Shown piece after piece: positions 49,897 through 52,980 of a DNA stretch of 64,000 nt (positions within the stretch are counted from its first letter, which is position 1; each line of letters begins with the position of its first letter). This DNA is from Dehalogenimonas sp. W. GTDB lineage: Bacteria > Chloroflexota > Dehalococcoidia > Dehalococcoidales > Dehalococcoidaceae. Below the pieces are notes generated by a model. That model saw only the letters and a list, made by a program, of their open reading frames with translations. It was not told where the DNA came from and ran no database searches. The translations under genes and the position numbers were made by a program. The stretch lies in the NCBI RefSeq assembly GCF_037094495.1, contig NZ_CP146612.1, positions 124,001-188,000 of the forward strand, written 5' to 3'.

Positions 49897-51267
49897 ATGC
49901 AAAACAAATTAATTCATACTAATCCCATAACTATCACAGGGATATATGTCGAACGTCTTTTCGGAAAGTACACGTATCGTATTCCAGAGCATAAGAATAT
50001 TGGCTTATTCACGAACTTGATAATTCTGTACGGTGAAAATGGCACAGGTAAGACCAAATTGCTTAGTATTCTTTATCACATTCTCTCTCCTGCGAGAGCC
50101 GGTGGTCACAGGTCATATATCGCTAAAATCCCATTTGGATTATTCCGTGTGGATTTAAGCAACGGAATGAGCGTTTCAGCCGAACGAACAACGAGTAAAA
50201 TTATAGGGGATTTTACCTGGTCTATCTCAAAAGGTAAAAAGGTACTAGCCTCAGCCTCATTACAAGCGGATTCGCGGGGTAGTATTCCCAAAGAATTACC
50301 ACCAGACATCGAAGAAGATCATAGCAAAGTTGTCGAAATTCTCGAAACGTTGGGAATAAACTTAGTTTTCTTAGCAGATAATAGAGAGATTCAAGGCACT
50401 TCCCCAATTACAGAGACCATTGATTTCCATGGCGATAAATTGGTACTTGAGCGACCATTCACGTTATTTGAGAGGGATTTGCTTTTTAGATCAACTCAAA
50501 GGGATAAAGCTGATTCAGTACCACTCCTAGAAGCAATCAATCAATTAACAACTTGGATTAGGGATAGAGTAGTAGAAGCGTCTAACCGGGGGGATACAAA
50601 TGCGAGTACTATCTACACAGATTTAATAAAAACGATTGCATCAATAAAAAGAAATGAAATTGACGTAACAGATGTCCAAGTAGCCGATTTAAGAAACACA
50701 TTACTATCGCTCTCAGAAATCAACAAACAATACTCTGATCTGGGTTTGTTACCCCAGATGAATTTAGAAACTGTCGCAGAGACAATAAAATCTGTAGATA
50801 ACCAAGCCGCCAAAAATGCTCTATACAGTGTGACCAAACCGTATATCGATGGAATTACCGCTCGTTTCAAAGCACTGGAAGAAATAAAGGATATCATAAA
50901 TATCTTTCTTCGCAACATAAACGGCTTCTATAAAGATAAACTGATCCAATACAATTATTCGACCGGAATATCTATAAAAACGAACGAAGGGCAGGCGCTC
51001 GATCAGGCTGTTTTGTCTTCTGGGGAAAAGCAGCTATTACTATTGTTCTGCCATGCCGTAGCAGTCACAAATACATCACGCATTTTCGTAATTGATGAGC
51101 CTGAGATTTCTTTGAACGTAACATGGCAAAGAAAGTTGGTGAGAGCTCTACTTGAATGTACATCGAAGAGTCAATTCCAACTTATCCTTGCAACCCACTC
51201 AATAGAATTGTTGACCCAACATTCTGACCATGTTGCCGAGTTAAATAACTTGATGATTAAACAATGA
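49897..51267 (+). CDS. AAA ATPase of a PARIS-like defence pair (AriA-like)
   Basis: 456 residues. Walker A LYGENGTGKTKLL (residues 45-57), an ABC-like signature LSSGEKQLLLLF near 370 and Walker B IFVIDEPEISLN near 392, then LATHSIELL, the OLD/AAA_15 ATPase pattern. The middle (about 180-340) is helical. TAGGAGTG precedes the ATG. The stop overlaps the DUF4435 gene by 4 bases. In PARIS, AriA senses a phage anti-restriction protein and sequesters AriB until triggered. The sequence is AT-rich compared with both neighbours, suggesting recent acquisition. Other AAA+DUF4435 pairs exist, so the PARIS label is an inference. Confidence 0.8.
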   Translation: MQNKLIHTNPITITGIYVERLFGKYTYRIPEHKNIGLFTNLIILYGENGTGKTKLLSILYHILSPARAGGHRSYIAKIPFGLFRVDLSNGMSVSAERTTSKIIGDFTWSISKGKKVLASASLQADSRGSIPKELPPDIEEDHSKVVEILETLGINLVFLADNREIQGTSPITETIDFHGDKLVLERPFTLFERDLLFRSTQRDKADSVPLLEAINQLTTWIRDRVVEASNRGDTNASTIYTDLIKTIASIKRNEIDVTDVQVADLRNTLLSLSEINKQYSDLGLLPQMNLETVAETIKSVDNQAAKNALYSVTKPYIDGITARFKALEEIKDIINIFLRNINGFYKDKLIQYNYSTGISIKTNEGQALDQAVLSSGEKQLLLLFCHAVAVTNTSRIFVIDEPEISLNVTWQRKLVRALLECTSKSQFQLILATHSIELLTQHSDHVAELNNLMIKQ

Positions 51268-52142
51268 CATCAGGCCGCCAACGGAAAATTGATGAGCTAG
51301 CAGAACTCTACAAACGCCATCCTGATTTCAGGGATTTTTATGTAGAAGGTCTACGCGATCGTGAATTTTTTCGTTGGTTCTTTGAAACCGCTGATATCCA
51401 TCATGTCAATGTATACGACGTTGGTGCAATAGATGTTCCACCTGAATGTTCCAGAGAGCATTGTCAACCTAATAACAACAGGGGACGTATTGCAGCTTTG
51501 GCTAAAACGTTGGAAATATTATCAGGTCCAGGTACCACCCAAGCAACATGTATAATCGATAAAGATTTTGATTCTATTTTACAAATTGTTCATGAGCCGA
51601 ATATATTGTGTTGTACTGATTATGCTTGTTTAGAAATGTATTTTGTTAATGAGAAATGCCTCGACAAGTTTTGTAAACTTTTTTTAAACACATCGGCTCT
51701 AACAGGTATTAACATTTTAACAATGCTAGTTCCAATATTGCAAGCACTTTTTATTATTCGTTTTGTTAACGAAACACTCGATTTATCTTTAAATTATATG
51801 TCTTTTGAACGCTGTTGTGCTTTCCACCCACCGCAAATAACGTTTAATGAGTGCGAATACATCGAAAGGTACCTGTCAAAAAACGGGAGGCTTGATCAGA
51901 AAGATGTTTTTATAAAGATGGTGGAGGAATCAACAATTAAACTGGAAAGAGAGTATAGAAATCAAATCCATGGGCATGATTTTGTCAACTTGATTGCCTG
52001 GTTCCTTTTGAAAAACGGAGTAGAAAGAAAATTATGTGACCCTGGCGTTGTCGAACGGGGACTAATAGCATGTATAGAATACGACTCATTACTTGCCTAC
52101 CCTTTATTCAGCTATTTGACCAAACGTTCAATTGTTAATTAA
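51264..52142 (+). CDS. DUF4435/TOPRIM-like effector (AriB-like)
   Basis: 292 residues. FYVEGLRDREFFRWFF (about residues 22-37) supplies the TOPRIM-type Glu; TCIIDKDFDSI near 92-103 supplies the D-x-D; TDYACLEMYFVN follows with the conserved acidic residue of DUF4435. The C-terminal half is helical. AriB of PARIS is a TOPRIM-type nuclease reported to cleave tRNA; the same is proposed here by similarity of arrangement. It is coupled to the ATPase gene by an ATGA overlap. GC is low, like its partner. Confidence 0.78.
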   Translation: MTSGRQRKIDELAELYKRHPDFRDFYVEGLRDREFFRWFFETADIHHVNVYDVGAIDVPPECSREHCQPNNNRGRIAALAKTLEILSGPGTTQATCIIDKDFDSILQIVHEPNILCCTDYACLEMYFVNEKCLDKFCKLFLNTSALTGINILTMLVPILQALFIIRFVNETLDLSLNYMSFERCCAFHPPQITFNECEYIERYLSKNGRLDQKDVFIKMVEESTIKLEREYRNQIHGHDFVNLIAWFLLKNGVERKLCDPGVVERGLIACIEYDSLLAYPLFSYLTKRSIVN

Positions 52143-52497: not shown

Positions 52498-52980
52498 ATG
52501 ATTGCTGCAGGTGACAGGTCTCCGGAATTCAAACTCAGAGACCAAAACGCGCATTTCGTTAGCCTCTCTTCCCTGCGCGGCAAAAAGGTGCTGCTGTCTT
52601 TCAGGCCGCTGGCCTGGACGCCCGTTTGAACTGACCAGATGAAGTCTCTGGAAGAGGCTTATGAACAGTTAGCCCAACTCAATACGGTGCCTTTTGGTAT
52701 CGGCGTGGATTCTGATCCTTCCAACAAGGCGTGGGCCAAAACAATCGGGGTGGTGAAAACCAGGTTGCTGGCCGATTTCTGGCCTCACGGGCGTGTCGCC
52801 ATGCAGTATGGCGTATTTGAGGAAATACAGGGTGTCTCTAAACGCTCTAATGTACTCATAGACGAAAACGGAGTGGTATTGTTTTCAAAGTTATACCCTG
52901 GAGACGAGTTGCCCGATATTCAGGAGATAATTCAGGTTATTCAAAATCGTTCTCCTGGTTGTTTGGAGAAGTTTGACTAA
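52498..52980 (+). CDS. peroxiredoxin, probable selenoprotein (Sec at in-frame TGA)
   Basis: 160 residues if the TGA at 52627-52629 (codon 44) is read as selenocysteine. The frame is otherwise continuous: IAAGDRSPEFKLRDQNAHFVSLSSLRGKKVLLSF before it, then PLAWTPV-[TGA]-TDQMKSLEEAY, VGVDSDPSNKAWAKTIGV-like strands and VLIDENGVVLFSKLYP. The TGA is exactly where AhpC/TSA peroxiredoxins have the peroxidatic Cys (T-x-x-C). A CCAGA/TCTGG hairpin with a GT-containing loop starts five bases after it. Peroxiredoxins reduce peroxides; Sec versions are known in anaerobes. The alternative is a nonsense mutation removing the first 47 residues. A lone late Cys lies near the C-terminus. Confidence 0.8.
52635..52651 (+). 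promoter_or_regulatory. SECIS-like hairpin
   Basis: CCAGA (52635-52639), seven-base loop TGAAGTC, TCTGG (52647-52651), starting five bases after the in-frame TGA. Bacterial SECIS elements are short stem-loops just after the UGA with G and U in the apical loop, read by SelB. The 5-bp stem is short and the spacing slightly tighter than in E. coli fdhF, so this is a candidate. Confidence 0.5.

What the first reader, a model, noticed from the sequence alone, without database searches (positions are those of the whole stretch)
52498..52980. Peroxiredoxin with in-frame TGA at the catalytic cysteine: probable selenoprotein
Seen: one continuous frame from ATG 52498 to 52980 broken only by TGA at 52627-52629, flanked by PLAWTPV and TDQMKSLE, so the TGA replaces the peroxidatic Cys of the T-x-x-C motif. 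A CCAGA/TCTGG hairpin with GU in its loop begins five bases later. Known: Sec-containing peroxiredoxins and SelB-dependent recoding exist in anaerobes. Inference: this TGA is decoded as Sec. Gene callers will truncate it to begin at 52639 and lose the active site.
Basis: partly seen in the sequence, partly recalled or inferred. Interest (0 to 1): 0.8.

Follow-up and report, generated by a model that had tools for sequence, protein, structure and literature searches.

The report
Selenocysteine peroxiredoxin, AhpE type
This bacterium very probably reads an internal stop codon as the rare amino acid selenocysteine at the active site of a small peroxide-destroying enzyme, so ordinary gene finders would cut the enzyme short and lose its catalytic end; such enzymes are already known, but this copy sits in a branch where every other member examined uses plain cysteine.

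Summary
Confirmed. The frame 52498-52980 is open except for TGA at 52627-52629. Read through, it is a complete 160-residue peroxiredoxin (Pfam AhpC-TSA, 100.8 bits), closest in sequence and predicted fold to the 1-Cys peroxiredoxin AhpE. The TGA falls exactly on the peroxidatic Cys, which is Cys in 102 of 102 close homologues. The same genome (one contig, 99.75% complete, probably Dehalogenimonas) carries selA, selB, selD and tRNA-Sec(UCA). Two other genes there, selD and a formate dehydrogenase, have in-frame TGA with SECIS-like hairpins.

Its loop lies only 10 nt from the TGA, and its 5' arm is largely conserved Gln-Met codons. The minimum-energy fold holds a different hairpin, AAGUCUCU-GGA-AGAGGCUU at 52642-52660, 20 nt from the TGA, which fits the published bSECIS model. 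Only 0.24% of synonymous recodings, and none of 104 Cys homologues, match its stability.

In trees the protein nests inside an otherwise all-Cys clade, apart from other TGA-bearing peroxiredoxins of the phylum (AU p = 0.02), suggesting a separate Cys-to-Sec change. Sec peroxiredoxins (TxxU) are a known kind, so this is a new member. Sec in the peptide is not shown directly.

The parts
52498..52980 (+). Peroxiredoxin gene (AhpE type), 160 codons with TGA read as Sec, stop TAA
   Evidence: Pfam AhpC-TSA 100.8 bits; AhpE best in solved structures by sequence and by fold
52627..52629 (+). In-frame TGA at the peroxidatic Cys codon, read as Sec44 (inferred)
   Evidence: Cys in 102/102 close homologues and in all 82 aligned segments
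52642..52660 (+). Probable SECIS hairpin AAGUCUCU-GGA-AGAGGCUU, 8 bp, loop starts 20 nt after the TGA
   Evidence: Minimum-energy fold; 0.24% of synonymous recodings hold a qualifying hairpin as stable; 0 of 104 Cys homologues reach -5 kcal/mol
52635..52651 (+).
   Evidence: Loop 10 nt from the TGA, outside the 16-37 nt model; absent from the minimum-energy folds; CAGATG occurs downstream of the site in 84 of 104 Cys homologues as Gln-Met codons
52483..52489 (+). Possible weak ribosome binding site GGCGGGA, 8 nt before ATG 52498
   Evidence: Read by eye; not tested

Best explanation
The gene encodes a selenocysteine-containing peroxiredoxin of the AhpE (1-Cys) type. Inferred mechanism: SelA, with selenophosphate from SelD, makes Sec-tRNA(Sec); SelB bound to the hairpin at 52642-52660 delivers it at the UGA at 52627; the Sec44 selenolate, set in the PxxxTxxU motif with Arg116 nearby, reduces peroxides and is then regenerated by an outside thiol, because no conserved resolving Cys is present. 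Shown here: intact frame, TGA on the catalytic position, the full Sec machinery and two further TGA-bearing selenoprotein genes in the genome, a hairpin that fits the SECIS model, and AhpE-like sequence and predicted fold. Inferred: Sec insertion itself, the peroxidase activity, the reductant, and a separate Cys-to-Sec change in this lineage.
For: Intact frame and family match. TGA on a Cys conserved in 102/102 close homologues, with 29 of 32 near-invariant columns kept. selA, selB, selD and tRNA-Sec in the genome. selD and a formate dehydrogenase gene with in-frame TGA in the same genome, as reported for the genus. Hairpin fitting the bSECIS model of PMC13188914 with a synonymous-recoding frequency of 0.0024 and no equal among 104 Cys homologues. 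AhpE-like fold, mean pLDDT 94.1, TM 0.89 to 5c04. UGA still ends other ORFs of the window, so it is not recoded throughout.
Against: No close relative with TGA was found, so conservation of the TGA and of the hairpin cannot be tested. The query's end branch is long (0.67 against a median of 0.21), which could reflect relaxed constraint. The looser form of the SECIS test (MFE structure qualifies and is at most -7.5) is met by 11% of synonymous recodings and 20 of 104 Cys homologues. A Cys relative in G003, same genus, appears frame-shifted, so loss of this kind of gene may happen in the genus.
Confidence: 0.92

Rival explanations
1. Pseudogene: an AhpE-type peroxiredoxin recently inactivated by a nonsense change (TGC or TGT to TGA) that happened to strike the catalytic Cys codon.
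For: Long end branch; a Cys relative in G003, same genus, is split between two frames, either a real frameshift or a sequencing error.
Against: The change would have to fall on the single catalytic codon out of 160, in a genome with Sec machinery, with no other stop or frameshift, 29 of 32 near-invariant columns kept, and a SECIS-like hairpin seen in 0.24% of synonymous recodings.
Confidence: 0.05
2. Sequencing or assembly error at a TGC or TGT codon.
For: Only one genome carries this TGA; reads were not available.
Against: An error would have to fall on the catalytic codon and beside a SECIS-like hairpin absent at that strength from 104 Cys homologues.
Confidence: 0.02
3. Two separate products: termination at the TGA, with a truncated protein started at ATG 52639.
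For: Mechanical ORF listing starts there.
Against: The first 43 residues align with homologues throughout and include strands of the predicted fold; a product from 52639 would lack the catalytic residue; no Shine-Dalgarno-like sequence is evident by eye before 52639.
Confidence: 0.01

Closest known systems
Mycobacterium tuberculosis AhpE (Rv2238c), a 1-Cys peroxiredoxin (PDB 5c04, 4x0x, 1xxu)
   Same: Best match among solved structures by sequence (8.4e-27) and by fold (TM 0.89, rmsd 1.3 A, 35% identity); same P-L-A-[FW]-T-x-x-[CU] site
   Different: Cys at the peroxidatic position; about 35% identity
Cys AhpE-type peroxiredoxins of Dehalococcoidia (L137, L138, L108, L140, L027)
   Same: Nearest relatives, 52-59% identical, grouped with the query in the tree (87/95)
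   Different: TGC or TGT codon at the site; no qualifying hairpin of -5 kcal/mol or better among 104 Cys homologues
Other TGA-bearing AhpE-like genes of the phylum (L156-L162 with FTGGU; L170-L173 with PLAWTxxU or PVAWTPVU)
   Same: TGA on the same column, in genomes that carry selA where tested
   Different: 34-45% identical to the query and outside the clade that holds it; a single Sec clade is disfavoured (p-AU 0.022); no hairpin found by my strict criterion in L170-L173
PrxU-type Sec peroxiredoxin (NCBIfam NF040737)
   Same: Peroxiredoxin fold family; TGA at the peroxidatic position in relatives such as L122, L113 and L116
   Different: Query scores 53.6 bits against a cut-off of 270

Membership tests
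Bacterial selenoprotein (SelB-dependent) | Sec machinery (selA, selB, selC, selD) in the genome | tested here: met
   all over the curated cut-offs, adjacent on one contig
Bacterial selenoprotein (SelB-dependent) | In-frame TGA aligned to a redox-active Cys of homologues | tested here: met
   Cys in 102/102 close homologues; Cys codons in all 82 segments
[quoted passage not shown]
   52642-52660: GGA loop, 8 bp, 20 nt, fold -12.5 kcal/mol; model from PMC13188914
Bacterial selenoprotein (SelB-dependent) | Sec present in the protein | not testable with these tools
   Needs 75Se labelling or mass spectrometry
Sec peroxiredoxin (Prx, PF00578, TxxU) | AhpC-TSA domain with PxxxTxxU motif | tested here: met
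   100.8 bits, cut-off 26; PLAWTPVU; motif from PMC13188914
Peroxiredoxin, AhpE type | Closest to AhpE in sequence and fold | tested here: met
   the AhpE entries rank first by sequence and by fold
Peroxiredoxin, AhpE type | One peroxidatic residue, no conserved resolving Cys | tested here: inconclusive
   The query's only other Cys is C155, in a low-confidence tail; about half of the homologues have Cys at column 75, Ser in the query
Peroxiredoxin, AhpE type | Peroxidase activity | not testable with these tools
   Needs an enzyme assay
PrxU (NF040737) | Score above the curated cut-off of 270 bits | tested here: not met
   53.6 bits

The most novel reading that the evidence does not exclude
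A single Dehalogenimonas lineage has separately turned the catalytic Cys of an AhpE-type peroxiredoxin into Sec and formed a SECIS within the conserved coding sequence, inside a clade that is otherwise all Cys across many phyla in the sample: a gain of a selenoprotein rather than inheritance from the other TGA-bearing peroxiredoxins of the phylum.
Probability: 0.6. Interest if true: 0.5.

Novelty: new member of a known kind. Interest (0 to 1): 0.38.

Why it matters
It adds a third likely selenoprotein, besides SelD and formate dehydrogenase, to a strictly anaerobic dehalogenating bacterium, in a gene that mechanical calling truncates at the active site. It is also a candidate for a Cys-to-Sec gain, the direction in which peroxiredoxins were reported to move (five Cys-to-Sec events and no Sec-to-Cys in PMC1794560). 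Its Cys relatives make the change, and the formation of a SECIS inside coding sequence, open to direct comparison.

Tried and rejected
Membership in PrxU: rejected on score. Inheritance from the other TGA-bearing AhpE-like genes of the phylum: disfavoured by the tree and the AU test, not excluded, since the alignment is short, the query branch long, and a loss at the clade base followed by regain gives the same pattern. UGA recoded throughout the genome: rejected, since other ORFs of the window end in TGA. Plasmids gave only matches of 38% identity or less among the rows listed. A scan for further TGA-joined frames in the window gave nine other candidates, which were not checked one by one. 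Papers with both selenocysteine and AhpE: seven, none relevant by title and abstract.

Full report
Observation. The frame 52498-52980 is open except for TGA at 52627-52629. Read with TGA as Sec, the product is 160 residues and scores 100.8 bits to Pfam AhpC-TSA.

Machinery. The window lies in a one-contig genome of 1,772,240 bases, 99.75% complete. It holds selB (339.7 bits, 520071-521927), selA (524.8 bits, 521955-523289), selD (371.6 bits, 523429-524355) and tRNA-Sec (72 bits, 524407-524497, anticodon TCA) in a row on the - strand. selD itself carries an in-frame TGA (AYSG-U-AAK), and so does one of two full-length formate dehydrogenase genes (ARL-U-HSS). This matches reports that Dehalogenimonas genomes carry selCDAB and a Sec FdnG (PMC13390414) and that one strain has a Sec SelD (PMC4918011). 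Calling the genome Dehalogenimonas, perhaps strain W (1.77 Mb in that paper), is my inference from genome size and the sizes of its relatives.

Position of the TGA. In 80 homologous loci from many phyla the aligned codon is always TGC or TGT. In 102 close homologues the column is Cys without exception. Of 32 near-invariant columns the query keeps 29; the exceptions are R36, N76 and the TGA site. The motif is PLAWTPVU, which matches the PxxxTxxU given for Sec peroxiredoxins (PMC13188914).

SECIS. The published bacterial model asks for a 3-9 nt loop with G in its first two positions, a 4-16 bp stem, 16-37 nt between TGA and loop, and an MFE of at most -7.5 kcal/mol. The minimum-energy fold puts an 8 bp hairpin, AAGUCUCU-GGA-AGAGGCUU, at 52642-52660, 20 nt after the TGA. 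Opened by one pair, its loop reads U-GGA-A, the N-GG-N-N pattern of the review. Only 0.24% of 5000 synonymous recodings hold a qualifying hairpin as stable. None of 104 Cys homologues reaches -5 kcal/mol, against 5 of 15 TGA-bearing sequences, the query included. The looser MFE criterion alone is weak: 11% of recodings and 20 of 104 Cys homologues meet it, and the z-score of the fold against dinucleotide shuffles is only -1.64. As own-genome controls, selD meets the model, and fdnG has a qualifying hairpin of -6.3 kcal/mol though its minimum-energy fold did not pass my filter.

CCAGA/TCTGG (52635-52651) has its loop 10 nt from the TGA, outside the model. CAGATG, which covers most of its 5' arm, occurs downstream of the site in 84 of 104 Cys homologues as Gln-Met codons. 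It uses bases of the 52642-52660 hairpin, so the two cannot form together.

What protein it is. A sequence search of solved structures puts M. tuberculosis AhpE first (8.4e-27). The AlphaFold2 model, made with C for U and 27 sequences (mean pLDDT 94.1), matches AhpE best (TM 0.89, rmsd 1.3 A). The protein is far under the PrxU cut-off. Its only other Cys is C155, in a low-confidence tail; about half of the homologues have Cys at column 75, where the query has Ser. A one-Sec mechanism with an outside thiol reductant is inferred from this.

Evolution. Other AhpE-like genes with TGA on the same column exist in the class, with the motif FTGGU (L156-L162), and in the phylum, with PLAWTxxU or PVAWTPVU (L170-L173). 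The genomes tested for them carry selA (G384, G348, G298, G320, G370, G420, G609, G484, G483). In a careful tree with the trait column masked, the query lies inside a 70-row clade (support 100/97) whose other members are all Cys, next to Cys genes of Dehalococcoidia (87/95). Holding all TGA rows together is disfavoured (p-AU 0.022). The alignment is short, the query branch is long, and a first tree had been seen before the test, so this supports a separate change without proving it.

Judgement. Decoding as Sec is very likely. Sec peroxiredoxins are a known kind; this member, and its place inside an otherwise Cys clade, were not found in the sources searched.

Noticed in passing
window 49897-52142: Just upstream, two overlapping genes of lower G+C (0.37-0.39 against 0.49 for the peroxiredoxin): an AAA_21/AAA_15 ATPase matching PADLOC AriA and a DUF4435 protein matching AriB, so probably a PARIS-like anti-phage pair.
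   Followed up: partly
L156-L162: A set of AhpE-like genes with motif FTGGU and TGA on the catalytic column in several families of the same class, with a conserved CCGUG-type loop 21-24 nt after the TGA. L156 stays under every NCBIfam cut-off listed.
   Followed up: partly
L170-L173: TGA-bearing PLAWTxxU or PVAWTPVU peroxiredoxins in other classes of the phylum, in genomes with selA, but with no hairpin by my strict bSECIS criterion; they may use another SECIS form.
   Followed up: no
L112 (G003:C1:1251947-1252392): The Cys relative in another species of the genus is split between two overlapping matches in different frames: a frameshift or a sequencing error.
   Followed up: no
L122 (G005:C1:61152-61577): Another species of the genus has a different TGA-bearing peroxiredoxin, with motif DFTFVU and a strong CAGUUG-type hairpin.
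   Followed up: partly
P0001 column 75 (window 52720-52722): About half of the Cys homologues carry a second Cys here (DSVPCKKAW), a possible resolving Cys; the query has Ser.
   Followed up: no
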